Origin: Thiosulfatimonas sediminis
GTDB lineage: Bacteria > Pseudomonadota > Gammaproteobacteria > Thiomicrospirales > Thiomicrospiraceae
Length of the DNA stretch: 64,000 nt
Direction: 5' to 3'
Assembly (NCBI RefSeq): GCF_011398355.1
Contig: NZ_AP021889.1
Span: forward strand, 1,612,001-1,676,000
Every line of letters begins with the position of its first letter. Position 1 is the stretch's first letter. Below are positions 49,975 to 63,598 of the stretch, piece after piece. The position numbers were made by a program, and so were the translations under genes. Below the pieces are notes generated by a model. That model did no database searches. It was not told the DNA's origin and saw only the letters and a program-made list of their open reading frames with translations.

Positions 49975-50646
49975 TTAACGCTTCCAATCTACGCCTCTCT
50001 TCACCACTTTTGCTGGTGAACCGGCAATAATCGTGTTCTCCTCCGTAAACGCTTTATTGACAAAGGAACAGGCACCAATCACGCAATTATTCGGAATAAC
50101 CGTATTTTTTGACAAAAACGCTCGGGCGGCAATCCAAACATGATCCCCGACGATTAAAGGGTTGGCCTCATTGACCCGCTGCCCCGTCTCCAACAAATAG
50201 ATTTTGTGTACATCCGTAGAACGAATTTCAATTTCACGCGAAATCATGCAATTCTTACCAATTGTCACATTCTGATCACGACTCAAAAGATAAACGCTTT
50301 CTGCGGTGGTATTCTCACCAATTCGAACCTCCAGACCACAACCATCGACCAAAATACGGCCTGACCATTTCACGTTATCGCCAATGATGACCTGATTATT
50401 TTGCCCTTTAAAAATAATTTGCAATTTACGGGCTCGAAAATTATCACCAATCTCAATACGGTTATTGACCGCACCTGGCTTAAAAACAAACGCATTAAGC
50501 CCTTTAAACGCAGAATTTTTACCAATATTTATTTGATTCTGATCCAGTGCCCCCAGAACAACATACTGGTGAAGATGACGTGCTTTAACTAGCCAACTCC
50601 ATAGCTTTTTAAACTTTTGTTTAAACCAATCCATAATATCAATCAT
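49975..50646 (-). CDS. Hexapeptide-repeat acyltransferase
   Basis: 223 residues forming a left-handed beta-helix of the LbetaH acetyl/acyltransferase family: repeated I-G-x-N/D-x turns (INIGKNSAF, IEIGDNFRA, VIIGDNVKW, VTIGKNCM), then NPLIVGDHVWIAARAFLSKN and IIAGSPAKVVKRG, the classical end. It probably acetylates a sugar of the surface polysaccharide. The start overlaps the stop of the upstream gene (ATGA 50643-50646). Last gene of the glycan operon. Confidence 0.9.
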   Translation of the reverse strand: MIDIMDWFKQKFKKLWSWLVKARHLHQYVVLGALDQNQINIGKNSAFKGLNAFVFKPGAVNNRIEIGDNFRARKLQIIFKGQNNQVIIGDNVKWSGRILVDGCGLEVRIGENTTAESVYLLSRDQNVTIGKNCMISREIEIRSTDVHKIYLLETGQRVNEANPLIVGDHVWIAARAFLSKNTVIPNNCVIGACSFVNKAFTEENTIIAGSPAKVVKRGVDWKR

Positions 50647-51629
50647 AAAGCCTTTGATTTATTACACGCCAGACTCGCCAAGCGAACTTGTGCTTGCTCA
50701 AGCATTAATTGACGTCGCTCAACGTCATCAGCTAATTCCAAAATCGCTTCTATCCATAATGCCGGTTCCAGTGGTAATACCAAACCCGCGGGAATAACGC
50801 CTGAGGAACATATTGACGCAACAAACCCAGCACTTTCGCTATTTACAGAATAAATACCCACCGCACCAGCTTGCGTAATGTCGAACACCTTGGTGTATGA
50901 ACGTGCAGCATTAAAAGCCGAATCCAGCAAAGGTGCTAGACCAATATGCCGCCCAGGTTGCTTAATAAAATGCTGATACGCCTCCCATCCCATTGGATGG
51001 ATAACCTGAACTCTGGGCAAACCTTTAAAAGCTTGATAAACCGATGGTCCACCGATTATTTCAAAACAAACGTTCTTATTGCGCGCTAATACGGCTGTCA
51101 TAACCGGCAAAAGCCACTCGATTTCCGCTTTATGAGAGGCGGAACCATGGTAAAAGACTTTCACCGAATTATGTAGCGCTTGAACCGGTTTAGGTGTCAT
51201 CAAATCAGGAGAATAAGCATGATACTTATTTAGTAGATAGGGAGTAGAAACCCAAAATTCCGCTTGCTGTTGTAGTAACCAGTTTTTATGCAGAGCAGCT
51301 AATGTTAATAACTTCCAACGATAGCGCAGCGGCATTCCTTTGGAAGCCTTCAAATCAAGCAAATCATCATCCATAAAAAAATAGAGAGACTTTAAAACAA
51401 CTCTATTTTCAGCAACTAGTTGACGCCATTTTTTCGGCAAATAACGTACAAAAACGACAATTGCATCCGTTAAAAGATCCGCTGAAATCCCTTGATTAAA
51501 AGTGCAGCGTTTAACATCAAATTTAGTCAATGGAAATTGCGGCAGAACAAAATAATCGGTAGATGGGTTTTCTCGCTCTTCAATGATAATCACCTGTGTT
51601 TTAGATTGCGCCTTATCGGTAACACTCAT
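50643..51629 (-). CDS. Putative glycosyltransferase, GT-B-like
   Basis: About 328 residues. FYHGSASHKAEIEWLLPVM and ENPST-type N-terminal parts resemble glycosyl transferases of the family 1/4 type, with the donor-site region HIGLAPLLDSAFNAARSYTKVFDITQAGAVGIYS. Its acceptor is unknown. ATG 51629 overlaps the upstream stop (ATGA 51626-51629). It is the second last gene of the operon. Confidence 0.72.
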   Translation of the reverse strand: MSVTDKAQSKTQVIIIEERENPSTDYFVLPQFPLTKFDVKRCTFNQGISADLLTDAIVVFVRYLPKKWRQLVAENRVVLKSLYFFMDDDLLDLKASKGMPLRYRWKLLTLAALHKNWLLQQQAEFWVSTPYLLNKYHAYSPDLMTPKPVQALHNSVKVFYHGSASHKAEIEWLLPVMTAVLARNKNVCFEIIGGPSVYQAFKGLPRVQVIHPMGWEAYQHFIKQPGRHIGLAPLLDSAFNAARSYTKVFDITQAGAVGIYSVNSESAGFVASICSSGVIPAGLVLPLEPALWIEAILELADDVERRQLMLEQAQVRLASLACNKSKAL

Positions 51630-53752
51630 CGCTTTAACCAAGGTTTTTTAACCATCGGATAACGGCTCAGTTCAAAATTGGGTCTGGCATAGTTAAGATT
51701 TGGATTATAAAACGGATCATTTTTAAGAACATGTCCCCACCTTGAACGAATATAGTCCGCCTCTTTTTTAGCTCTAGCTATTTTCTCAGGATTATCATCT
51801 TTGCCACGCGAGACCGATTCGTGATGATACATCTTTACATAAGGGGTAAAGACTACACGCATGCCTTTTTCACGTACTCTTAAACAATAGTCGACGTCAT
51901 TAAACGCCACCGACAAATGCCTTTCATCTAACCCGTTTAAACTCTCAAATACATCACGTTGCGTTAAAAGACAGGCCGCAGTGACCGCCGACAAGTCTTG
52001 GGCAACTATCGCACGCCCCATGTAACCAGCCTGCTCTTCTTCAAACCCAGAAAAGAAATGATCGGCGCAACCCCCAGGGCCAACCGCATCGCCTGCGTGC
52101 TGAACCGTGCCGTCAGGAAACAACAATTTAATACCAACAGCCCCAACATTAGACTGTTGTAACTGTCCCAACATCACTTCTAACCAATCTGGAGAAATCA
52201 CTTCGGTATCATTGTTTAACAAACAAAAAACTTCGCCATTACAATATTTGGCGGCGTAATTGTTAATGGCAGAGTAATTAAATGGCTTGTTGTATTCAAC
52301 CACGTTAACATTCTGTAACGCACTGACCTTGGCAAAATACGCTGAGGTCTCGAGCTCTTCTGACTGATTATCAACAATGATAATTTCAAAATGATCGTAG
52401 CTTGTTTTGGTCAACAAACTTTCAACACAACGTTCAAGGTGGTGCAACATATCACGTGTTGGGATAATGATGCTCACTAAAGGCCTCGCTTTTACAGCGT
52501 AAACAATCTTTTTATAGATCAAATGGTAATCAGATATATCAGCAATAATTTCGTGCTTGTTAAAAAATTTTGTTAATAACTCGGTTTCCTGCACACCCTC
52601 AGCCAACAATCGCTTTTGATTATTCGCTAATAAAGGCTTGGAAAACAACAACGCAGGAATACGACATACCTCTAAGCCATCAGACTGATAAGGCTTTAAT
52701 CGACTGAATAACCGAAGAATTACTGCATAAATAGTGAGATTTTTACAACTTTCTAAATCCAAATAATCTGTGTTGACCATTAACACGCCACCAATAAAAT
52801 TTTGGCTTAAAAAGAACTCAGGTGACCATTCAGGTTTTAAAACAGGCGAACAACGTTCACCATTCTCATCAATATAATCATGATCGCTATAAATCATCGC
52901 CGCATTCGGCTTTAAACAGGCCTGGTGTGCAAACCAATAAAGCGCATGAGGACGTAGCTGACAACCCTCTTCAACCAACATCAACCAGCGGGTATTTCGA
53001 TGCTGATAAAACTCATAGCTCAAATCGGATTTTTTAACGATTTTAAAACGTGAATAAAGCTGTTCAGACAAGCCATTTTGGATGGCACGACTCGAAATCG
53101 CTTCAGTTTGGTGACCAAGTTCAAGTAACTCAATTTCAGGCAGCTGCGAGTTCTTCTTAATTAACCGCTTAATTTTGAAAATATCTTTATGGTTCAACTG
53201 ATCAAACAGCTTTAACCACTCTTTATATTCAATCTTAGGGCTATAGGCTCTAAATCGACCCGCAATTTCATAAGCTTTCGATAAATCGAAAATAAACTGA
53301 TGCCACCGAATACCTGCCTTATAAATCACATCTTGATTTTGACTTTTATAAAGCAGATAAAGCCGTTTTGACATTAAGTAGTTTCGCTCAAACCAAGAGA
53401 TAGATTTGAACTGAAAATCTTGCATTTGAAAACGGCCTTTTGAGCTCATTGGTTCAAAGTAGATTTTTTCAATATTGGCTGGGAAGTGAACTACCTCAAA
53501 AATTTTACCTTTCAAAGTAATGGGCAATTTGTAAGTGAAGGTTTTACCACCTTTCAACTTAAACACCAACTTAGCGTCATAACCGGTGCACTGTCTAAGT
53601 AATAGACCTTTTACAACGACCCATCTTTTAGGCCACTTAGTGCCGGACTCTGCATAACATTTAAAATAGGCAGGGGTATCTTCCACCCTCCAAGACTGAA
53701 CGGTATCGTGCTTATTTAAGTGCGAGTGAAGTGGCTTTAGCGAGATATTCAT
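51626..53752 (-). CDS. Family 2 glycosyltransferase (O-antigen/RfbC-like)
   Basis: 708 residues. The N-terminal ~400 residues hold a first, weakly conserved transferase-like region (AAMIYSDHDYIDENGER). The C-terminal half is a clear GT-A family 2 domain with VSIIIPTRDMLHHLERCVESL, LLNNDTEVISPDWLEVML and FNDVDYCLRVREKGMRVV. This matches large O-antigen biosynthesis transferases that carry two GT domains. The start overlaps the upstream stop (ATGA 53749-53752). Confidence 0.87.
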   Translation of the reverse strand: MNISLKPLHSHLNKHDTVQSWRVEDTPAYFKCYAESGTKWPKRWVVVKGLLLRQCTGYDAKLVFKLKGGKTFTYKLPITLKGKIFEVVHFPANIEKIYFEPMSSKGRFQMQDFQFKSISWFERNYLMSKRLYLLYKSQNQDVIYKAGIRWHQFIFDLSKAYEIAGRFRAYSPKIEYKEWLKLFDQLNHKDIFKIKRLIKKNSQLPEIELLELGHQTEAISSRAIQNGLSEQLYSRFKIVKKSDLSYEFYQHRNTRWLMLVEEGCQLRPHALYWFAHQACLKPNAAMIYSDHDYIDENGERCSPVLKPEWSPEFFLSQNFIGGVLMVNTDYLDLESCKNLTIYAVILRLFSRLKPYQSDGLEVCRIPALLFSKPLLANNQKRLLAEGVQETELLTKFFNKHEIIADISDYHLIYKKIVYAVKARPLVSIIIPTRDMLHHLERCVESLLTKTSYDHFEIIIVDNQSEELETSAYFAKVSALQNVNVVEYNKPFNYSAINNYAAKYCNGEVFCLLNNDTEVISPDWLEVMLGQLQQSNVGAVGIKLLFPDGTVQHAGDAVGPGGCADHFFSGFEEEQAGYMGRAIVAQDLSAVTAACLLTQRDVFESLNGLDERHLSVAFNDVDYCLRVREKGMRVVFTPYVKMYHHESVSRGKDDNPEKIARAKKEADYIRSRWGHVLKNDPFYNPNLNYARPNFELSRYPMVKKPWLKR

Positions 53753-54969
53753 GTAAGTTGTTGGGCATTCGCCACACGACCCTCTTCTAGGCCAAATTTA
53801 AGGTAATGAACAAATGGGTTCATCGAAGACTTTGATACGTCTTGGTAGCGGTTGATATAGAACTTCAAATCAAAAAACTCTGTCGGGTCACGTTTTTCAA
53901 TTACGCCAAAACGCAAAAAATGCTCAATCGGATCAATCCCAGCATTGGCAACATCCGGATATCGTAAAAGATACCAAGTTTTATCAAACGTTCCAGATGC
54001 TTCAATAATTTGTTTATCGCGTTTTTGCAATTTGTTTAATTTAGACTTTTTAAACCAGGGTTTTGTTACCTCAGCAGATTCTATTTTAGGTAAAACTGTC
54101 GTCAAGGTGTTTAACGTTTCATGTACCTGTTTTATTAATTCGTCTGGATAAGACCAAACCTCTTCATTCCGGTCATGACTTTTAAAGTAATCTTTATGCT
54201 TTACCCTGCCCTTAGAGGCGGCACTGCCTTTGCGAGACTTACCTAAGACAAATTCTTCTAACGACTTAACAACGTAATGATTAACGCGTAAGTTTTCCCA
54301 TATCGGAGTAACCGCAACACCAAGTTTCTCAGCCACCATAGCCACATCTTCGCCTAACGTATTGACATAGCGACCAGATTTCAAACTCACATAATGCGGG
54401 TTTCTAAAGGCCTTAATCGTATTTGGTCGCACCATAGTCTTGTAGTTTTTATTGGCCGTAAATTTCATCGCCGATTGACGGGTAAAACGCTCAATGACCA
54501 TCCCGTCCTCTTTAAACAGCTGTCCTGCTGAACCAAAGCAAGCCCACTGCATCGCCAAAGCAGAAATATTCTGGTCTGCAAATATACGGTCAATAAAAGG
54601 GGTAATGGTCAACTCGCCATCTAATGGCGTTAAATATTCATCCGCATCAATAAAAGCAATCAAATCAATATCGTTTGGACACAGCGAAACCAGCTTTTTA
54701 TAAGCCGGCAGTTGCGGCTTGACATCACCCACCGTTGGAAAATCAACAAACGTTACCAAACCTAATTTGACCAACTTTTGCAAAATCTCACTGGTTTCAT
54801 CCGTACTGTCATTACTGGCAATTAAAAAATGCCGAACACCCACTACCCAGTGATACGCGATCCACTCCAGCAAATAATCCGCCTCGTTTTTAACGATAGC
54901 ACCGATAGCAATTTTCAATTTTTTATTTACCAACTCATTCGACCTATTTAATTTCTGGCGTATTTTCAA
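53749..54969 (-). CDS. Glycosyltransferase (Glyco_tranf_2_4 type) with C-terminal FDxxWYLxxYPDV repeats
   Basis: 406 residues. The N-terminal domain KIAIGAIVKNEADYLLEWIAYH, NDSTDETSEIL and LIAFIDADEYL (acidic metal-binding DxD) is of the Glyco_tranf_2_4 kind. The C-terminus (about 330-400) carries two repeats: FDKTWYLLRYPDVANAGIDP and FDLKFYINRYQDVSKSSMNP, each followed by an H-x-L-x-x-G motif. The same repeat begins the large protein encoded at 55281-58580. The start is uncertain: TTG 54969, or TTG 54933 with AGG upstream. Confidence 0.82.
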   Translation of the reverse strand: MKIRQKLNRSNELVNKKLKIAIGAIVKNEADYLLEWIAYHWVVGVRHFLIASNDSTDETSEILQKLVKLGLVTFVDFPTVGDVKPQLPAYKKLVSLCPNDIDLIAFIDADEYLTPLDGELTITPFIDRIFADQNISALAMQWACFGSAGQLFKEDGMVIERFTRQSAMKFTANKNYKTMVRPNTIKAFRNPHYVSLKSGRYVNTLGEDVAMVAEKLGVAVTPIWENLRVNHYVVKSLEEFVLGKSRKGSAASKGRVKHKDYFKSHDRNEEVWSYPDELIKQVHETLNTLTTVLPKIESAEVTKPWFKKSKLNKLQKRDKQIIEASGTFDKTWYLLRYPDVANAGIDPIEHFLRFGVIEKRDPTEFFDLKFYINRYQDVSKSSMNPFVHYLKFGLEEGRVANAQQLT

Positions 54970-55294
54970 TATAAAGTGGCTCAGACTTCTGCCTTACTGA
55001 CCAATGCTTTTCTTTCGATGCGCCATTATAACTAGCGGAAATTCGACTCATCCATCCATTACTATCTTCATGCTGCCAAGCAACTTTTGATGGAATAATG
55101 CTAATTGCGCTCGGTTCTTTCAAACAACTTAAGGCCTTTTTCCATACCACCAAGCCGGTGACGTTCACAACCCCTTGATTAGGGATTTTATAGTGAACAT
55201 TTTCTATAATCATTTTCAACAGCTGTTCGGTATTCTCAGATGCCGGTTCACTGACAATAAAAGAATTGATTAACTGTCCATCAGGCGTCTGCAC
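54944..55294 (-). pseudogene. Displaced C-terminal part of the multidomain glycosyltransferase
   Basis: 116 codons in another frame than the gene just upstream. INSFIVSEPASENTEQLLKMII is the expected continuation of a DXD-type sugar transferase (Gly_transf_sug) whose first half ends at 55281. Only a GTG is available as start and no ribosome-binding site is visible. In this frame a stop (TAG near 55301) closes it upstream, so the frame change must be within about 20 bases (55284-55303). Confidence 0.7.
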
Positions 55295-58200
55295 CGTTGT
55301 CTAATATGGTTGTTCCGCCAACATCAATCAACTCATTCAGAAACGCCATTTTAGGCACATTTTTTAAATCTGAATAGACACCGCCCTCTCGATTAATAAT
55401 CGCAACACGAGCGATATCCGATTTCATCGCTTCAAAACGGCTTGTCTCTATGGCGTCTATTACCCGAAGGGAATCACTAAAAACTTGCTCAATTAACCGT
55501 TTAGACCACACTTTTATTTCAAAATCAGGAAACATCTCAGCCCATTGGCCAATATTATTGCGAATATCAAGCGGTAAATCGTCAAGCCCGTCATGCCCAC
55601 TGGGCGAAAACCAAACAAAGTGAATTTTTTTAGGAATACCAGCTGTCGCTGTAAAAGTCGTCTTCTGCTTAGAATCGCTTAACAAACCATCAACTTCAGT
55701 TTTCAAACGCGAATGCCAAGTAAATTGTTCTAAAAAAGCAAAATCATGCGATTGATTGGCGTCGAGAGCGGAGTGAATCTGCATGATAAATTCGTCATGC
55801 GATTTAACAGTAATCACCGCGGATGCATCAGGTAGGTTTTTCACTTCTGTTGCCACCACCGGCACGCGGTTAGCCAGATACACAAACACCTTTAAAGGGT
55901 TCATGTTATCGGTCATGTCCATTTTAAGATGCGGCACAATCCCAACATCAAACTGAGACACGATCGCATTGATATTTTCGTAAGGCACCACACCGAACAT
56001 ACGAATATTCGAGTGTTTTTGCAAGGCTCTCACCATTGGGTTTGCATGCGTAGAGCCAACCAAAACAATCAAAGCGTCGGAAAACTCATCGGCAATTCTC
56101 TCTATGAGAGGAATATCTATTTTCGCTTCCAGATTCCCGACAAAACCGATTACCTTACCTTTAAAGCCCTTCAACTCTTCGTAAAGCGGATTATTGATCG
56201 GCTCAACCATTTTCGGTGAGGCTTCGCAGCCGTTTGCAACCAATCGAATATCTGGATTAAACACCTGCATCGAATCAATTACCGGCTGACAATTCGCCAT
56301 TGCTAAATCGGCATGCCCAAGCAAATTTTGGTAATGCTCGGTTAACCAAGCCTTCTCAACCTGCGAAACATGCGGCCAAGCGCGATGATCGTCCACCACA
56401 TCCACTACCACTTTTTGCGGCTTAAAGACATCCAATATTTTTTCCGCTAATGGAATTTTCGGATAGAGCCAAAATACCGATTTATCCGCACTCACTCCCT
56501 CTCGGTCAAAAACATCCTGCAAATATTGTGCGTAACCGTCAAACAGCGAAATTCTCTGTCCATCGCCATCCTCTCGCATGGTGTAAACACCTGCTGGATG
56601 CGCAAACACATTGTAAGAAATCTTCGGCGTATCTAGCTTGCCGAGTAGCTTCTCATAAATCTTGATATAGATATTTCGGCTCTGGGTTAGCTCGTCCGCA
56701 GAACGCAGGCGCGCGATATCAAATTCGGAGATCGGTGCATCAAAAATCACTACTTTACGCACATCATCTCGACTTGCCAAATACTCTATAACCATATCCG
56801 AGCGCCGCCCATAAAGCCCGGTATCGTTCTGCTTCCAAAAAACAACAATATCAATGCCTGTTGCTTCATTTGCTCTAACGATTGGAAACAAACGATGTTG
56901 CAACCGCTTTAAATCATCAAATCCTGTTAGTGGCTTAAGGGGGGTGCTGAGAGTTGTCTCAATAAGTGCTTTAAGCTTTAAAGCCGCTGAATGATAGCTA
57001 TAGTTCAACAAAAACTGTTTTCGCAGCGCGAGTGAATCCGAGTGAGAAAGCGTTTTTTTCAAGGCTTGCGCAATCACCTTATCTAAAGGCTCATCCGGCA
57101 ATAAACGCGCCACACCATCCTTAACTAATTGCAACATCGGCTCAGTTGCCGAAACCAATAATGGTATACCCATCCCAATCGCGTCAATCGCTTTCGCCGG
57201 CAACTGAAATTTAGAAATAGGATGATTGACATCCTGTGGCAAGATCACTAAGTCCGCCATCACAATAATTTCAGGAATGGCTGAAAACGGCTGATTAGGT
57301 AAATAAAGAACCTTACCATAAGCCAGTTGACTTACCTGAGCAGTCACACTTTTATCAGGTGCTTCACCGACTACAACCAACAGAATATTTGCATCATTTA
57401 GCTTACCAACCGCCTCGGCAATCTCACCCACGCCTTTATGAACGCGAGGCGTACCAAAAAACATCACCACTTTCGCATCAACAGGGATGGAATATTTTTC
57501 ACGCTGGCGTACTTTAGAAAAAAGTGCCGGATCAAACGCATTTTCATCACGCACATGCGGAATCACTGTACCGCCAAATTCTCCCTCTAACGCCACATTA
57601 GACGTAATTAAAGCATCCGCACAATCGCGCGTTAGGCTATCCGTTAAACGTGACCAAATCTCGCCAAACGGCTCCGTCTCTTTTTGCAAAACTGCGTCCG
57701 GCATACTGAGCACCTCAGCAAGCGAATAAGGTTGCGCATGTCTAAAAAAAGCCAATTCATGATCGTCCACATCGACAATCAACGGAATACCATATTTTTC
57801 TTTAAATAAAATCCCCAGTTCAACCGAAGGCATTCTCGGCTTACAAGCAATCACCACATCCGGCTTAAATTTTTTAACCGCCTGTTCGCATGCAGCCAGC
57901 CATTCACTCATTTCACCGCCCGGCAAAGCAATCACCGGCAAACGGCTATGACGTAACGGCTGCCAAATATCATTGCCATAGCGTGAAAACTGAAAACCGC
58001 ACACCACCACATTATCAACCGCTTGCTCCAAAGCTTCAGCAAGCATATACGAGCGCCCGAGCGGATTATGCCCTACGTCCCAAGTAATCACCAAAGCGGT
58101 CATTTTTAACTTCTTGATCGGTTCTAAAATCGGTAGAACGAGCGGCTTTCCGGTAGATTTCTCAGCCAAACGCAATAAACGTTGATAAAACGGACTGAAC

Positions 58201-58580
58201 TTTAACAGCTGTTTTTGAAAACCGGACACTTCGCGATGAGAAAAGGCCCGGTGCTCAGGATAAGGCTTTAAACCGGCACTTTTACCAACCTGCAAAAAAT
58301 GCAACAAAGGATTGCCTACCATTTGCTGATTCTCTGGCAAACGAGTAATTTGAGAAAGATAATAAACCGAATCAAATCGAGGCCCTGGCTCTCGCCCCTC
58401 TTCAAAACCATGATTCAAATAATGAACAATCGGATCCATACCCGCTGCCGCAACATCGGGATACGCTTTTAGATACCAAGACTGATCAAAAAGGGAAGAC
58501 GAAGCAAGCAACTTATAGTTGCGCGCTTGAACCGCGTTTTTAGAGGATTTTTTAAAGAATCGTTTGAGCGTTTTTTTCAT
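55281..58580 (-). CDS. Three-domain glycosyltransferase, truncated at C-terminus by a frameshift
   Basis: 1099 residues, first gene of the glycan operon. Residues about 30-115 are FDQSWYLKAYPDVAAAGMDP repeats. About 150-550 is a GT-B family 4 transferase (IPLIVDVDDHEL, MFFGTPRVHKGVGEIAEAV). About 570-960 is a second GT-B domain (VVDVVDDHRAWPHV, IGFVGNLEAKIDIPLIERIA). From about 978 a third, Gly_transf_sug-like domain starts (IPKKIHFVWFSPSGHDG, INREGGVYSDLKNVP, where the second Asp of DxD is Lys). The third domain is cut by a stop, and its remainder is at 54944-55294 in another frame. Confidence 0.82.
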   Translation of the reverse strand: MKKTLKRFFKKSSKNAVQARNYKLLASSSLFDQSWYLKAYPDVAAAGMDPIVHYLNHGFEEGREPGPRFDSVYYLSQITRLPENQQMVGNPLLHFLQVGKSAGLKPYPEHRAFSHREVSGFQKQLLKFSPFYQRLLRLAEKSTGKPLVLPILEPIKKLKMTALVITWDVGHNPLGRSYMLAEALEQAVDNVVVCGFQFSRYGNDIWQPLRHSRLPVIALPGGEMSEWLAACEQAVKKFKPDVVIACKPRMPSVELGILFKEKYGIPLIVDVDDHELAFFRHAQPYSLAEVLSMPDAVLQKETEPFGEIWSRLTDSLTRDCADALITSNVALEGEFGGTVIPHVRDENAFDPALFSKVRQREKYSIPVDAKVVMFFGTPRVHKGVGEIAEAVGKLNDANILLVVVGEAPDKSVTAQVSQLAYGKVLYLPNQPFSAIPEIIVMADLVILPQDVNHPISKFQLPAKAIDAIGMGIPLLVSATEPMLQLVKDGVARLLPDEPLDKVIAQALKKTLSHSDSLALRKQFLLNYSYHSAALKLKALIETTLSTPLKPLTGFDDLKRLQHRLFPIVRANEATGIDIVVFWKQNDTGLYGRRSDMVIEYLASRDDVRKVVIFDAPISEFDIARLRSADELTQSRNIYIKIYEKLLGKLDTPKISYNVFAHPAGVYTMREDGDGQRISLFDGYAQYLQDVFDREGVSADKSVFWLYPKIPLAEKILDVFKPQKVVVDVVDDHRAWPHVSQVEKAWLTEHYQNLLGHADLAMANCQPVIDSMQVFNPDIRLVANGCEASPKMVEPINNPLYEELKGFKGKVIGFVGNLEAKIDIPLIERIADEFSDALIVLVGSTHANPMVRALQKHSNIRMFGVVPYENINAIVSQFDVGIVPHLKMDMTDNMNPLKVFVYLANRVPVVATEVKNLPDASAVITVKSHDEFIMQIHSALDANQSHDFAFLEQFTWHSRLKTEVDGLLSDSKQKTTFTATAGIPKKIHFVWFSPSGHDGLDDLPLDIRNNIGQWAEMFPDFEIKVWSKRLIEQVFSDSLRVIDAIETSRFEAMKSDIARVAIINREGGVYSDLKNVPKMAFLNELIDVGGTTILDNGADA

Positions 58581-58594
58581 TTATCGACAATCTT

Positions 58595-58640
58595 ACATTC
58601 GCTATTCAGGCCATTATATTATTAAAATAAGCGACAATTT
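58595..58640 (-). promoter_or_regulatory. Candidate promoter of the glycan operon
   Basis: On the minus strand a perfect TATAAT (58613-58618) lies 33 bases before the start codon; the -35 position is a weak match (AAATTG at 16-base spacing). It lies between the insertion sequence and the operon. Confidence 0.4.
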
Positions 58641-58648
58641 ACCCACAC

Positions 58649-58662
58649 CCTAGTTTTCTAGG
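58649..58662. repeat. Short perfect hairpin beside the insertion sequence
   Basis: CCTAG-TTTT-CTAGG with outer ACACC...GGTGT matches (58645-58671). It lies between the glycan-operon promoter and the IS66 end; role unknown. Confidence 0.35.
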
Positions 58663-58712
58663 ATGCGGTGTGATTCCACGGCAGAAGTGCTTCGAACGTA
58701 AGCGTCCGGCAA

Positions 58713-60266
58713 TCACCGGTTGCTAGGTTGCCAGTTATGCGGTAGGAGTTGGTCGATTTGACTGGCTTTATGGGTGGGCAAGCGTTCAAGCACATCTTTG
58801 AGATAGGCGTAAGGATCCAGACCATTATTTTTAGCTGATTGAATCAAGCTCATAATATTCGCCGCACGTTGACCACTGCGTAGACTGCCGGCAAACAGCC
58901 AGTTCTTGCGACCTAACGCCCAAGGTCGGATTTGATTTTCTACCCAGTTATTATCGATGGGCAGGCGGCCATCTCCAAGGTATCGGCTTAAGGCATCCCA
59001 ACGTTTCAGGCTATAGTGAATCGCTTTTTCCGTTGCCCCACCTTTGGGCACTTTTTCTCGATGGACCTGCAACCATTTGAGTAACAGGTCCATGATCGGT
59101 TTGGATTTCTGCTTCCGGATTTCCTGTCGCTCATCGGGTGGCAAGGATTGGCTGTCTTTTTCAATGGCGTAAAGTTGCCCCATTAGTTCAATGGCTTGAA
59201 TGGCAATCGTGCTTTTGCCGCTTTCATGCAGTTCCACGAACTTACGACGGGCATGCGCCATGCAACCGACTTCGCTCACGCCTTGCTTAAAACTGGCTTT
59301 GTACCCTGAATAGTCATCGCACACCAACAATCCTTTCCAATCCTGTAGCACCTCTCTTGCGAACTTGCCGTTTCGTCCTTCACTAAAGTGGTAATACACC
59401 GCCTTATGTTGTGCATTGGCTGGATTGGTGTAGGCCCACAGATAGGCTTTATGGGTTTTCTTATTCCCCGGCTTGAGCATGGGCACTGGGGTTTCATCGG
59501 CGTGCAAGACCGGTTGCGTCAGCAAAAAGTCTTTGAGTGCTTGAGCCACCGGTTCAAGTTGAACACCACAGACGCCGACCCATTCGGCTAAAGTGGAACT
59601 GGGTAATTTAACACCGGCCCGTTCAAAGATCTGAGCTTGACGATACAGCGGTAAGTGATCAGCGTATTTGGCGATGAGCAGATGTGCGAGTAACCCAGAG
59701 GTGGGCAGACCTTTGTCAATGATTTGTGGGGGCATCGGTTTTTGAACCAGAGTTTCACAGGCATCGCACGCCCATTTGGAGCGAATATGACGTTCCACTT
59801 GAGAGCTACCGGGCAGATAATCCAGCTTCTCACTGACGTCTTCACCAATATGGCGTAATTGACAGCCACATGAACAGGTGGTGGATTCGGGATCATGACG
59901 GATTTCAAGACGAGGTAGGTTTTCGGGTAGCGGCTGACGCTTAGGTTTTTTCTTTGGTTGCGCTGTGTCGGTTTTGTCTTTGAGAGATTCCAGTTCCGAT
60001 TCAATCGCGGCAATGTCGGCATCGGTCACTTCATCCAACAGTGTCATCTGTAAGGCGCTGATCTGTTCACTTTTGTGTGAGAATTTTAGACGTCTGAGAT
60101 AGGCTAACTCATAGGTGAGTTGATCGATTTTAAGCTCTTTTTGTTGAATGGCTTTGGCATTGGCCGCAATGCGTTGGTCTTTTTCTTCAACCTGAACCAA
60201 CAACTGCGCCGCCAGTGTTCGTAACTGGTCAGCAGAGAGTTGATGGAGGTTTGGCATTGTTTTCAT
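58713..60266 (-). CDS. tnpC: IS66 transposase TnpC
   Basis: The DDE transposase of copy 1, 517 residues from ATG 60266 (the open frame up to 60347 overlaps tnpB and is not used). It has an N-terminal coiled coil, a zinc-binding part with CSCGC and CDAC, and the catalytic acidic residues in LHADETPVPML, LLVCDDYSGYKA and NNWVENQIRPWALGRKNW. It looks intact. Confidence 0.94.
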   Translation of the reverse strand: MKTMPNLHQLSADQLRTLAAQLLVQVEEKDQRIAANAKAIQQKELKIDQLTYELAYLRRLKFSHKSEQISALQMTLLDEVTDADIAAIESELESLKDKTDTAQPKKKPKRQPLPENLPRLEIRHDPESTTCSCGCQLRHIGEDVSEKLDYLPGSSQVERHIRSKWACDACETLVQKPMPPQIIDKGLPTSGLLAHLLIAKYADHLPLYRQAQIFERAGVKLPSSTLAEWVGVCGVQLEPVAQALKDFLLTQPVLHADETPVPMLKPGNKKTHKAYLWAYTNPANAQHKAVYYHFSEGRNGKFAREVLQDWKGLLVCDDYSGYKASFKQGVSEVGCMAHARRKFVELHESGKSTIAIQAIELMGQLYAIEKDSQSLPPDERQEIRKQKSKPIMDLLLKWLQVHREKVPKGGATEKAIHYSLKRWDALSRYLGDGRLPIDNNWVENQIRPWALGRKNWLFAGSLRSGQRAANIMSLIQSAKNNGLDPYAYLKDVLERLPTHKASQIDQLLPHNWQPSNR

Positions 60267-60283
60267 GCCGCGGATTATAAAGA

Positions 60284-60613
60284 CTAACTCAGTGATAAGG
60301 AAGTCTCGAGCCGTTGCCAAGGCAAGCCTTGCACCAGTGCCAGACATTGTTCAGGGGAGAGTGTCACGGAATCGCCCCGCCACAGTTCAGCCCAATGGAA
60401 TTTACCTTGATTCAAACGTCGAGCACACAGCCAGATGCCTAAGCCATCGTGGATCAGTATCTTCATTCGATTGCCACGCTTATTGGCAAACAGATACGCA
60501 TGATGGGGTTTGGCCTCACCAAACACGGCAATGACACGAGCTAATGCGGTATCGGGTCCTGCACGCATATCCATGGGTTCAGTCGCCAGCCAATAATGAT
60601 CAATGCGAATCAT
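60284..60613 (-). CDS. tnpB: IS66 protein TnpB
   Basis: 109 residues, Orf2 family. LATEPMDMRAGPDTALA and HHAYLFANKRGNRMKIL and the WLCARRLNQGKFHW block are hallmarks. It overlaps tnpA by four bases (ATGA 60610-60613) and is followed closely by tnpC. It is required for transposition in some IS66 members. Confidence 0.93.
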   Translation of the reverse strand: MIRIDHYWLATEPMDMRAGPDTALARVIAVFGEAKPHHAYLFANKRGNRMKILIHDGLGIWLCARRLNQGKFHWAELWRGDSVTLSPEQCLALVQGLPWQRLETSLSLS

Positions 60614-60960
60614 GACTGCACCGACTTGACAAAGGCGCTTAATTTGGCCAATTCTGTGACAGGCCAGTGCACAGCAATCTTGCCTTGAGGTGCAGGCAGT
60701 TCGACCAAGAGCGTTTGAGGCGATGACGGCGGCAGATCGTTCAAGACCAGCGGAATAAATGCCGCTTGGGAAGCATGGCGCTTTTTAAGCTGACGCTTCC
60801 AGTTCTGTATTTGATTGGCATTGATGCCGTAGTCTCGAGCCACTTGTGCAATCGAGGTGTTAGGGTCGTCGCAAGCGGTCAAAACCTGCTGTTTGAATTC
60901 CCGTGAGTAGCGACGGCGAATCTTTTTGACTGTGGGAAGCGTTGATAGTGTGTCTGTCAT
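60610..60960 (-). CDS. tnpA: IS66 protein TnpA
   Basis: 116 residues from ATG 60960. KKIRRRYSREFKQQVLTACD, then SIAQVARDYGINANQIQNWKRQ, is the helix-turn-helix of the Orf1 (IS3/IS66 type) family. The 83 bases upstream, to the IS end, contain the inverted repeat GTGCCCA...TGGGCAC (about 60966-60989) near the expected promoter. Confidence 0.93.
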   Translation of the reverse strand: MTDTLSTLPTVKKIRRRYSREFKQQVLTACDDPNTSIAQVARDYGINANQIQNWKRQLKKRHASQAAFIPLVLNDLPPSSPQTLLVELPAPQGKIAVHWPVTELAKLSAFVKSVQS

Positions 60961-61043
60961 AATAAGTGCCCATTTAAAATACGTGGGCACCTAATTATTC
61001 ACAGATAAGTGTGGTTGGTAAGAGGTGTTTACCGGATAGTTAC

Positions 61044-61137
61044 GCTGGTCTTTTTCCTCAACCTGAACCAACAACTGTGCCGCCAGTGTTCGTAACTGGT
61101 GGGCAGAGAGTTGATGGAGGTTTGGCAGCGTTTTCAT
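61044..61137 (-). pseudogene. tnpC: tnpC fragment of IS66 copy 2
   Basis: About 31 N-terminal codons (MKTLPNLHQLSAHQLRTLAA onward), then the frame runs into the end of copy 1 and stops. Homologous to the first codons of the copy 1 gene. Confidence 0.82.
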
Positions 61138-61154
61138 GCCGCGGATTATAAAGA

Positions 61155-61484
61155 CTAACTCAGTGATAAGGAAGTCTCGAGCCGTTGCCAAGGCAAGCCC
61201 TGCACCAGTGCCAGACATTGTTCAGGGGAGAGTGTCACGGAATCGCCCCGCCACAGCTCAGCCCAATGGAATTTACCTTGATTCAAACGTCGAGCACAGA
61301 GCCAGATGCCTAAGCCATCGTGGACCAATAACTTCATTCGATTGCCGCGCTTATTGGCAAACAGATACGCATGATGGGGTTTGGCCTCACCAAACACGGC
61401 AATGACACGAGCTAATGCGGTATCGGGTCCTGCACGCATATCCATGGGTTCAGTCGCCAGCCAATAATGATCAATGCGAATCAT
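61155..61484 (-). CDS. tnpB: IS66 protein TnpB (copy 2, intact frame)
   Basis: 109 residues from ATG 61484, differing from the copy 1 protein only at a couple of positions (MKLLVHDG in place of MKILIHDG). The frame stays open beyond the ATG to 61739 only because of the junction with copy 3. It has lost its normal partners. Confidence 0.85.
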   Translation of the reverse strand: MIRIDHYWLATEPMDMRAGPDTALARVIAVFGEAKPHHAYLFANKRGNRMKLLVHDGLGIWLCARRLNQGKFHWAELWRGDSVTLSPEQCLALVQGLPWQRLETSLSLS

Positions 61485-61642
61485 GACTGCACCGACTTGA
61501 CAAAGGCGCTTAATTTGGCCAATTCTGTGACAGGCCAGTGCACAGCAATCTTGCCTTGAGGTGCAGGCAGTTCGACCAAGAGCGTTTGAGGCGATGACGG
61601 CGGCAGATCGTTCAAGACCAGCGGAATAAATGCCGCTTGGGA
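61481..61642 (-). pseudogene. tnpA: tnpA fragment of IS66 copy 2
   Basis: The last ~53 codons of tnpA, identical in layout to 60610-60771, interrupted by the start of IS66 copy 3 at 61643. The helix-turn-helix part is lost. Confidence 0.8.
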
Positions 61643-61671
61643 GTAAGCGTTCATTCCAAGACGTGGTTGAA

Positions 61672-61941
61672 TCAGCTTGCCTCATGAAGTGGGCGTAATA
61701 ATACCGGTGCAACCTTGTATTGTTTGGCACCATCTTCATCCAGTACGATCACCGTCTTTCGATTGATTTTTGTGACGATGCCAAACACTTGTCCATAGCG
61801 ACCCTCAAACGTCACTTTCATCCCCAATCGCAATTGCATCAGCGCTTCCATGGTTTCACGCTCCTGCAACTGGTCAATGCGCTGGCAGATAAGCGTGTTC
61901 AGTTCCATTAACTGATCCAATGTCATGTCTTCAATGCGCAT
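61672..61941 (-). CDS. Small IS66 accessory protein, unknown
   Basis: 89 residues from ATG 61941, overlapping the tnpC stop by 11 bases. The N-terminal half is a helical coiled-coil (DQLMELNTLICQRIDQLQER). The C-terminal half looks like a small beta barrel (MKVTFEGRYGQVFGIVTKIN, KTVIVLDEDGAKQYKVAPVLL). Its role is unknown; its location inside the element, downstream of tnpC, suggests a passenger or accessory gene. Confidence 0.65.
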   Translation of the reverse strand: MRIEDMTLDQLMELNTLICQRIDQLQERETMEALMQLRLGMKVTFEGRYGQVFGIVTKINRKTVIVLDEDGAKQYKVAPVLLRPLHEAS

Positions 61942-63598
61942 GAGCGTAAACCTCTGTCGCTGTGTTTTGACGGTACGGGTGGCGTGGATCAATCAGTGCA
62001 CGCAGAGGGGCATCAGCGAACCGAGTTTTCCAGACGCGCGGTGTTAAATCCACAACGTCTTTGGCCGGGTGTCGGCCAATGCGTTGCAATACATCCACCA
62101 GGTAAGTGTAGGGGTTAACCTCATGTAACTTGCAGGTGCTGATCAGGCTTTGAATCAGACCCAGGTGCTCGGCCCCCAGTTCTGTCCAGCAGAACATCCA
62201 GTTTTTCCTACCCATTGGAATGGGCCGCAAGGCCCGTTCCAGGTGATTGGTGTCCGGTTGCACTTGCGGATCTTTTAAAAACACTTTCAGACTCGCTGTA
62301 CGACCCAGCACATAGTTCAGCGCTTTTGCCAGCGGATCACTGGGAACCAGTTGTGGGTTATCGAGTTGCTCCTCACACCATGTGAAGAAGTGATCGACCA
62401 CTGGCTTTGAATGATCCAGTCGGTACTGACGTTTTTTCTCGTCTGTCAGGCCCTGTGTCTGAATGACTTCTTCATTCCGGTAGATCTGTGCGATCTGCTG
62501 CAAGGCATCGGTCGCTCGTTCAGGGTGCGCTTTTTGTGCGTCAATAAAGTAGCGGCGTGCATGCACCCAGCATTGAGCATGCGTAACACCCTGTTGTGTC
62601 TCAACGTAGCGCGCATAGGCCGAATACCCATCACTGAGCAGGGTGCCATTAAATTGGTCCTTGAGAACGGTTTCTATGTGCAACCGCCCTCGGGAGCTGG
62701 CATAGGTAAACACCACTTCGTCAGCATCACCATACAGCGGCCAGAACCAGCCGGATTTCATTTTACCCTTTTGTGAGCCTGCCCGGACTTGATGGCCGGC
62801 TTTGATTGGGGTCTCATCCATGGCCAGTACTCGCGAGCGCAACACATTGTCTGTCTGGGCATCGACAATCGGTTTGAGTAGATCAATGGACCGCTTGACC
62901 AGATTGGTCAGGGTGCTGCGACTGACGGTAATGCCAGCCTGCATAAGCCGTTGATGCTGTCGATACAGGGGCAGATGGAATTGGAATTTGTCGACCAACA
63001 CTCCGGCGAGCAGACTGACGTCAGCCAGAGAGTTGTCGAGCACGTTCAACGGTGCGGGCGTTGTGATCAATTTTGGGTTGCAGCCCTTGCGACGGATCAC
63101 CGGGCGCTCAAACTTGAGTACCACATAGCTTGAGGCGCGCTGCGCCAGACGATAAGTGGTTTTGATGGCAATGATATCGTACAGGTCCGCATCGGGACCA
63201 CTGAGTTCTGGCGGTTGCTGTTCGATGACTTCCACGGGCACATCGGCGCTGAAGCGCAGACCGGTGTCGTTGAGACAATCGTCGTCACGCTGTTTTTTGC
63301 CTGTGCCGCGCTGATAGGCCTGAATGGTGCGTTTGGGTTCATCCACTGATGTGTCCGGTCGCATTGCCTGTTCACTCTGGAGCAGACTGGCCTGCTGGGG
63401 CAGGTCAAACACCTGCTTTTCTGACTTGAGACCGAACAGTTGTTTTTTGAACCAGTCGAGCTGGTGTTCGAGCTTAGCAATGGTTTCTGCTTGCAAGGCT
63501 AACTGTTCACGTAGCAGCGCATTTTGCTGAGCCAGGTCTGTGGCGTCAGACGAGGCGCATAGTGCTGTGGCAGGTGATGTTGAGCGCATTGAAATCAT
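61931..63598 (-). CDS. tnpC: IS66 transposase TnpC (copy 3)
   Basis: 555 residues from ATG 63598. An N-terminal coiled coil (ALLREQLALQAETIAKLEHQ) precedes the DDE core: LAMDETPIKAGH, LLSDGYSAYARYV and NHLERALRPIPMGRKNWMF hold the three acidic residues. The frame is intact. Confidence 0.94.
   Translation of the reverse strand: MISMRSTSPATALCASSDATDLAQQNALLREQLALQAETIAKLEHQLDWFKKQLFGLKSEKQVFDLPQQASLLQSEQAMRPDTSVDEPKRTIQAYQRGTGKKQRDDDCLNDTGLRFSADVPVEVIEQQPPELSGPDADLYDIIAIKTTYRLAQRASSYVVLKFERPVIRRKGCNPKLITTPAPLNVLDNSLADVSLLAGVLVDKFQFHLPLYRQHQRLMQAGITVSRSTLTNLVKRSIDLLKPIVDAQTDNVLRSRVLAMDETPIKAGHQVRAGSQKGKMKSGWFWPLYGDADEVVFTYASSRGRLHIETVLKDQFNGTLLSDGYSAYARYVETQQGVTHAQCWVHARRYFIDAQKAHPERATDALQQIAQIYRNEEVIQTQGLTDEKKRQYRLDHSKPVVDHFFTWCEEQLDNPQLVPSDPLAKALNYVLGRTASLKVFLKDPQVQPDTNHLERALRPIPMGRKNWMFCWTELGAEHLGLIQSLISTCKLHEVNPYTYLVDVLQRIGRHPAKDVVDLTPRVWKTRFADAPLRALIDPRHPYRQNTATEVYAHAH

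What the first reader, a model, noticed from the sequence alone, without database searches (positions are those of the whole stretch)
55281..55303. Frameshift splits the third domain of a large glycosyltransferase
The 1099-residue protein stops in the middle of a Gly_transf_sug-like domain, and the expected remainder continues in another frame. The switch must fall in about 20 bases. There is no homopolymer, so a simple slippage error is less obvious. It could be a real inactivation (phase-variable or strain-specific glycan), a programmed shift, or an assembly error.
Basis: partly seen in the sequence, partly recalled or inferred. Interest (0 to 1): 0.5.

Follow-up and report, generated by a model that had tools for sequence, protein, structure and literature searches.

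The report
Frameshifted third glycosyltransferase domain
A bacterial gene for a three-part sugar-transferring enzyme carries a shift of reading frame that cuts off half of its third part; the relatives found end before that part, so the first two parts probably still work, and the case is mostly ordinary.

Summary
On the minus strand a 1099-aa ORF (58580-55281) stops inside a GT32-type (Gly_transf_sug) domain. The remainder, 118 codons, runs on in the +1 frame to 54944. Both frames are open together only in 55281-55303.

The tail scores as coding, matches the C-terminal half of GT32 proteins by itself, and its stop abuts the next gene. In 31 of 31 loci where I could measure it, a GT32-type frame runs on for at least 119 residues after GGxYxD; this ORF has 28.

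Relatives give a split answer. The GT32 domain is normally one reading frame, but the fusion is not the norm among the relatives found: proteins like the first two (GT4-type) domains, on 17 of 20 phage contigs (3 are cut), a Sphingobium plasmid and another gammaproteobacterium, end near residue 959-966 without it. The break removes an added third module and leaves a normal-looking GT4-GT4 enzyme.

A real chromosomal frameshift is most likely (0.65); assembly error is the main rival (0.22), since no reads were available. Repeat slippage and programmed shifting have no support. No related genome searched has the fused gene, so strains could not be compared.

The parts
55281..58580 (-). 1099-aa ORF: N-terminal WYLxxYPDVA-type module, two GT4-type domains, first half of a GT32-type domain
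56946..58103 (-). first GT4-type glycosyltransferase domain (about residues 160-545, limits approximate)
   Evidence: Pfam PF13692/PF00534; aligned with relatives
55683..56858 (-). second GT4-type domain (about residues 575-966, limits approximate); the relatives found end here
   Evidence: PF13692 reports two stretches; NCBIfam matches at 779-913
55284..55643 (-). first half of GT32-type (Gly_transf_sug) domain, with GGVYSDLKN in the DXD position
   Evidence: PF04488, 31.6 bits, cut-off 23
55281..55303 (-). stretch where both frames are open; the frame switch lies here
54944..55300 (-). tail: second half of the GT32-type domain, +1 frame (118 codons; first possible start GTG at 55294)
53749..54969 (-). 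next gene of the operon, GT2/GT92-like glycosyltransferase; possible starts TTG 54969, 54933, 54918, next to the tail's stop
51626..53752 (-). GT2-type glycosyltransferase, overlaps the gene before it by 4 bases
50643..51641 (-). 332-aa protein without a family match
49975..50646 (-). hexapeptide-repeat acyltransferase-like protein
58713..63598 (-). block of IS66 elements (TnpC 58713-60347, TnpB 61155-61739, TnpC 61931-63598) directly upstream of the GT gene

Best explanation
A gene for a three-module surface-polysaccharide glycosyltransferase (GT4-GT4-GT32) has suffered a small insertion or deletion that shifts the frame inside its last module. Translation makes a 1099-aa protein with both GT4 modules complete and a stub of the GT32 module that ends 28 residues after GGVYSD. 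In the stretch next to the break the tail has one possible start, a GTG without a Shine-Dalgarno motif, and is probably not made in useful amounts. Shown: the frame break, the coding character and homology of the tail, and that the relatives found of the GT4-GT4 part end before the GT32 module. Inferred: that the change is a real chromosomal mutation, is recent (the tail keeps an open frame), ends only the third sugar transfer, and leaves the two GT4 activities.
For: Frame switch in codon scores and coding-like tail. The tail alone matches the C-terminal half of GT32 proteins (28.2 bits, best of 4791 reported shuffles 10.3; with 8 members found by PF04488 alone 17.2, best of 4414 reported shuffles 7.3). 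31 of 31 measured GT32 loci (29 distinct places) have at least 119 residues after GGxYxD against 28 here. 21 of 21 matches in other genomes spanning the break have no stop. The tail's stop at 54944 lies beside the next gene's possible starts (54969, 54933, 54918), while the premature stop leaves about 310 bases; the other junctions of the operon overlap by 4, 16 and 4 bases, taking the first possible starts. Relatives of domains 1-2 end at 959-966; in 4 of 4 plasmid records opened the GT32-type gene is one CDS of about 233-239 aa on its own. For real mutation against assembly error: no homopolymer or tandem repeat at the site, 14 of 14 IS66 transposase copies read without a frame break, listed completeness 100%, IS66 elements directly upstream.
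Against: No reads and no second strain, so an assembly error stays possible. No intact three-module homologue was found, so the ancestral fused protein is inferred. The tail's homology is distant: hhalign gives 83% probability with the full set but only 32% with the 8 independent members, and tblastn did not reproduce the break-crossing match of L009, though it did for L008 and L010. The second acidic residue of the DXD motif is Lys here, so activity of an intact third module is itself not certain, although 3 of 26 relatives share the Lys. The IS66 control read only the 14 best of 50 listed matches, so decayed copies were not looked at. No activity of the GT4 modules was tested.
Confidence: 0.65

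Rival explanations
1. The frame break is an error of sequencing or assembly and the living cell has one intact gene of about 1210 codons.
For: The tail still has coding character and a fully open frame, as an intact gene would. A single frame break in one assembly with no second record cannot be told from an error.
Against: No homopolymer at the site; 14 of 14 IS66 transposase copies read keep frame; one contig, listed completeness 100%, contamination 0.15.
Confidence: 0.22
2. Programmed +1 ribosomal frameshifting at or before the TGA makes two products, GT4-GT4 with a stub and GT4-GT4-GT32.
For: The direction is +1 and the main frame ends in TGA, formally like prfB (recalled); the tail is kept open.
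Against: No slippery run in the 23-base overlap, its longest run being 2. No unusual RNA fold (z -0.46; 58 of 200 shuffles fold at least as well). No relative with the same arrangement was found.
Confidence: 0.05
3. The tail is translated from its own GTG (55294) by coupling and assembles with the stub as a two-chain GT32 domain.
For: A GTG lies 14 bases inside the end of the main ORF, and the survey lists 111 candidate overlapping or adjoining pairs in 464 kb, so close gene pairs are common here.
Against: No Shine-Dalgarno motif before it by the scan (SD 0). Among 141 other related genomes the tail alone gave one weak match, with stops inside. GT32 relatives are single chains.
Confidence: 0.05
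4. Phase-variable gene switched by slippage of a repeat.
For: Surface glycan genes are often phase-variable (established knowledge; papers seen in a search listing only).
Against: No run above 2 in the overlap and no tandem repeat at the site; the only array in 54900-58800 is 2.1 copies of 9 bases at 55580.
Confidence: 0.02

Closest known systems
GT32 / Gly_transf_sug (PF04488) glycosyltransferases
   Same: PF04488 match above cut-off; GGxYxD block; tail aligned with the N-x-F and TGP-like stretches of relatives
   Different: domain split by a frame break; Lys in the second DXD place; fused behind two GT4 domains, whereas in the 4 plasmid records opened the GT32-type gene stands alone
Two-domain GT4-GT4 glycosyltransferases (Sphingobium sp. 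RAC03 plasmid pBSY17_1 WP_069063890.1; 817-aa protein of phage contig L094)
   Same: 33-34% identity over residues 149/164-959/966, same order of the two domains
   Different: end after the second GT4 domain; no GT32 domain found
820-aa protein of unnamed gammaproteobacterium G595 (L118)
   Same: 47% identity over residues 578-959
   Different: no match to the first GT4 domain at E 0.001; no GT32 domain found

Membership tests
GT4-type (Glycos_transf_1 / Glyco_trans_1_4) | Pfam match above the curated cut-off | tested here: met
   PF13692 69.7 bits (cut-off 27), two stretches; PF00534 63.7 (cut-off 26.4)
GT32 / Gly_transf_sug | PF04488 match above the curated cut-off | tested here: met
   31.6 bits, cut-off 23
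GT32 / Gly_transf_sug | complete domain in one chain (at least about 119 residues after GGxYxD in relatives) | tested here: not met
   28 residues here; 31 of 31 measured loci have 119 or more; 8 of 39 loci lacked the pattern and were not measured
GT32 / Gly_transf_sug | DXD motif with two acidic residues | tested here: inconclusive
   reads SDLK here; 3 of 26 relatives also have Lys there (read from the alignment)
Large clostridial toxin GT domain (PF12919) | Pfam match above the curated cut-off | tested here: inconclusive
   17.6 bits against 23.6 for the 1099-aa ORF; 23.6 against 23.6, as printed, for both pieces with X between; weak PDB matches to such toxins at E 0.017-0.24. Superfamily kinship only; not filed there
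Phase-variable contingency gene | homopolymer or short tandem repeat at the switch | tested here: not met
Programmed +1 frameshift | slippery codon and stimulatory element | tested here: not met
   no run above 2, ordinary RNA fold; the rest by reading the 23-base overlap
Programmed +1 frameshift | conserved arrangement in relatives, spanning product | not testable with these tools
   no close relative of the fused gene found

The most novel reading that the evidence does not exclude
The frame switch is kept on purpose: low-level +1 shifting or coupled restart yields a major GT4-GT4 enzyme and a minor form with an active GT32 module, setting how often a side sugar is added. It would be a recoding switch recently built next to a module fusion.
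Probability: 0.05. Interest if true: 0.55.

Novelty: new member of a known kind. Interest (0 to 1): 0.2.

Why it matters
It shows how surface-glycan enzymes are built from and lose modules: the shift returns a three-module fusion to something close to the two-module form seen in other bacteria and phages. For annotation, the 1099-aa product should be described as a GT4-GT4 protein with a broken GT32 module. Beyond that it is an ordinary frame break.

Tried and rejected
A scan of genome contigs with domain 3 plus tail gave one match, in a Bacteroidales ORF for an ABC-transporter substrate-binding protein, which I rejected as spurious. Searches of plasmid DNA and of phage records gave nothing. 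A codon-based survey of 464 kb for further frame breaks returned 111 overlapping or adjoining pairs, most of which look to me like ordinary operon junctions (not checked one by one), so it gives no error rate. The first null set counted stop codons; I use, which leaves them out. The scores for the part of domain 3 before the break were taken out of frame and are not used. One search lists residues 162-1003 for L105; one search shows that the last part runs past a stop codon and is a chance extension. Plasmid rows with two glycosyltransferase features under one match looked like a split GT32 gene; in the two opened they are a 4-base overlap with the gene before. Two literature searches (listings with abstract beginnings only, no paper opened) showed nothing on this gene. 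The full GT32 profile was partly gathered with the joined query; the 8 members found by PF04488 are the fairer test. I ran no structure prediction.

Full report
Observation. The window is 1612001-1676000 of a single-contig genome of 2,722,826 bases listed as 100% complete. On the minus strand an ORF of 1099 codons runs from 58580 to 55281 and ends ...GGTTILDNGADA*. In the +1 frame a second open frame runs from 55300 to 54944. The codon score, trained on 111 ORFs of at least 400 codons from 464 kb of this genome (window plus 20 stretches), leaves the main frame and enters the +1 frame between 55300 and 55270; this scan counts stop codons. With stops left out, the tail's 118 codons score 0.20 bits per codon. 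Of real segments of that length 54 of 473 score as low or lower; of spurious open frames of 100-200 codons inside long ORFs 1 of 111 scores as high.

What the pieces are. Pfam finds GT4-type domains (PF13692, two stretches) and, at residues 1007-1075, Gly_transf_sug (PF04488, 31.6 bits, cut-off 23); the tail matches no Pfam or NCBIfam family by itself. Against a profile of 26 distinct GT32-type ORFs the tail scores 28.2 bits; of 5000 shuffles 4791 were reported, the best at 10.3. With only 8 members that PF04488 alone also finds, the tail scores 17.2 and the best of 4414 reported shuffles 7.3. hhalign is less certain: 83% probability with the full set, 32% with the 8. The tail aligns behind the first part, in the right order. 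Of 39 loci with GT32-type matches, 31 (29 distinct places) had a GGxYxD pattern in a long frame, and in all 31 the frame runs on for at least 119 residues; in the 1099-aa ORF 28 remain. The 8 without the pattern were not measured. All 21 matches in other genomes that cross the break point have no stop inside (3, 18). Most are weak (E up to 0.01), and a tblastn check reproduced the crossing for L008 and L010 but not for L009.

Operon geometry. Genes downstream overlap by 4, 16 and 4 bases if the first possible starts are used (53752/53749, 51641/51626, 50646/50643). The tail's stop at 54944 lies beside the possible starts of the next gene, TTG 54969, 54933 or 54918, whereas the premature stop at 55281 would leave about 310 bases. 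The original end of the gene is thus most likely 54944.

Is the fusion normal? Two scans of IMG/VR gave 20 distinct contigs with relatives of residues 145/164-966 (three contigs were fetched twice). In 17 the frame stops 2-4 residues after the match ends at residue 964 or 966; L102, L114 and L116 are cut by the contig end. No frame of these loci, nor of L118 and L119, matches the first part of the GT32 domain at E 0.01. Among 17 viral ORFs compared 12 were distinct. For L105 one search lists a match up to residue 1003; one search shows it runs past the stop. A Sphingobium sp. RAC03 plasmid protein of 1007 aa matches residues 149-959 at 33%, the only one of the 15 listed of 99 plasmid records to cover over 40%. 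An 820-aa protein of an unnamed gammaproteobacterium matches residues 578-959 at 47%, without the first domain. Both end within 10 residues. Conversely, in 4 of 4 plasmid records opened (Lactococcus, Limosilactobacillus) the GT32-type gene is one separate CDS of about 233-239 aa. So the GT32 module was joined to a GT4-GT4 enzyme in this lineage or in one not sampled. No three-module relative was found among 141 other related genomes, 368 others of the class, 397 and 338 others of the phylum, 31 others of the genus and 61 of the family, in plasmids or phages. These are overlapping samples with fixed thresholds, so absence is not proven.

Cause. There is no homopolymer above 2 in the overlap and no tandem repeat at the site, so slippage-based phase variation is unlikely. 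I see no slippery motif; the RNA around the site folds no better than shuffles (z -0.46, 58 of 200 at least as well). As a check on the assembly, the 14 best IS66 matches of 50 listed were read: 13 transposases cover residues 1-544 and one 19-544, at 92-100% identity, none with a frame break. The partial copies were not read. This argues against an indel-prone assembly but cannot exclude a single error. IS66 elements lie directly upstream (58713-63598), and beyond the window's end are genes like rhamnose-precursor genes and more glycosyltransferases (L051), so the break lies in a surface-polysaccharide region disturbed by insertion elements.

How it works, as far as can be said. The 1099-aa protein has both GT4 modules complete and of the length seen in relatives. 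The GT32 stub lacks the half behind the DXD-like block. Inference: the first two transfers remain possible and the third is lost. The Lys in the DXD place is shared by 3 of 26 relatives (alignment), so it does not by itself show decay.

Verdict. A real frameshift mutation is most likely (0.65), assembly error next (0.22). Interest is low.

Noticed in passing
L094-L113, L115 (IMG/VR contigs): Phage contigs carry a GT4-GT4 glycosyltransferase of about 820 aa, 34% identical to residues 162-966. In L094 a terminase large subunit lies 3 kb away and the glycosyltransferase matches no PHROG family; no record of the phage collection matched P0001.
   Followed up: partly
window 58713-63598 and other places of the genome: IS66 elements in many copies: 50 matches listed, 13 full-length transposases of 92-100% identity (the window's own included) and partial or nested copies.
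   Followed up: partly
genome 70653-75725 and 1687741-1692814: Two distant places share the same series of full and partial IS66 copies with nearly the same match limits, which suggests a duplicated or jointly moved block.
   Followed up: no
window 58251-58517 and 53749-53990: A WYLxxYPDVAxxGxDPxxHY-type module stands at the N-terminus of the GT gene and twice (FDKTWYL, FDLKFYI) near the C-terminus of the next gene; the same part of P0001 matches several plasmid records, some annotated as glycosyltransferase.
   Followed up: no
window 50643-51641: 332-aa protein inside the glycan operon without a Pfam or NCBIfam match.
   Followed up: no
L051:4050-6014: 654-aa protein between rhamnose-type genes and glycosyltransferases with only weak FkbM-methyltransferase and coiled-coil-type matches below cut-off.
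   Followed up: no
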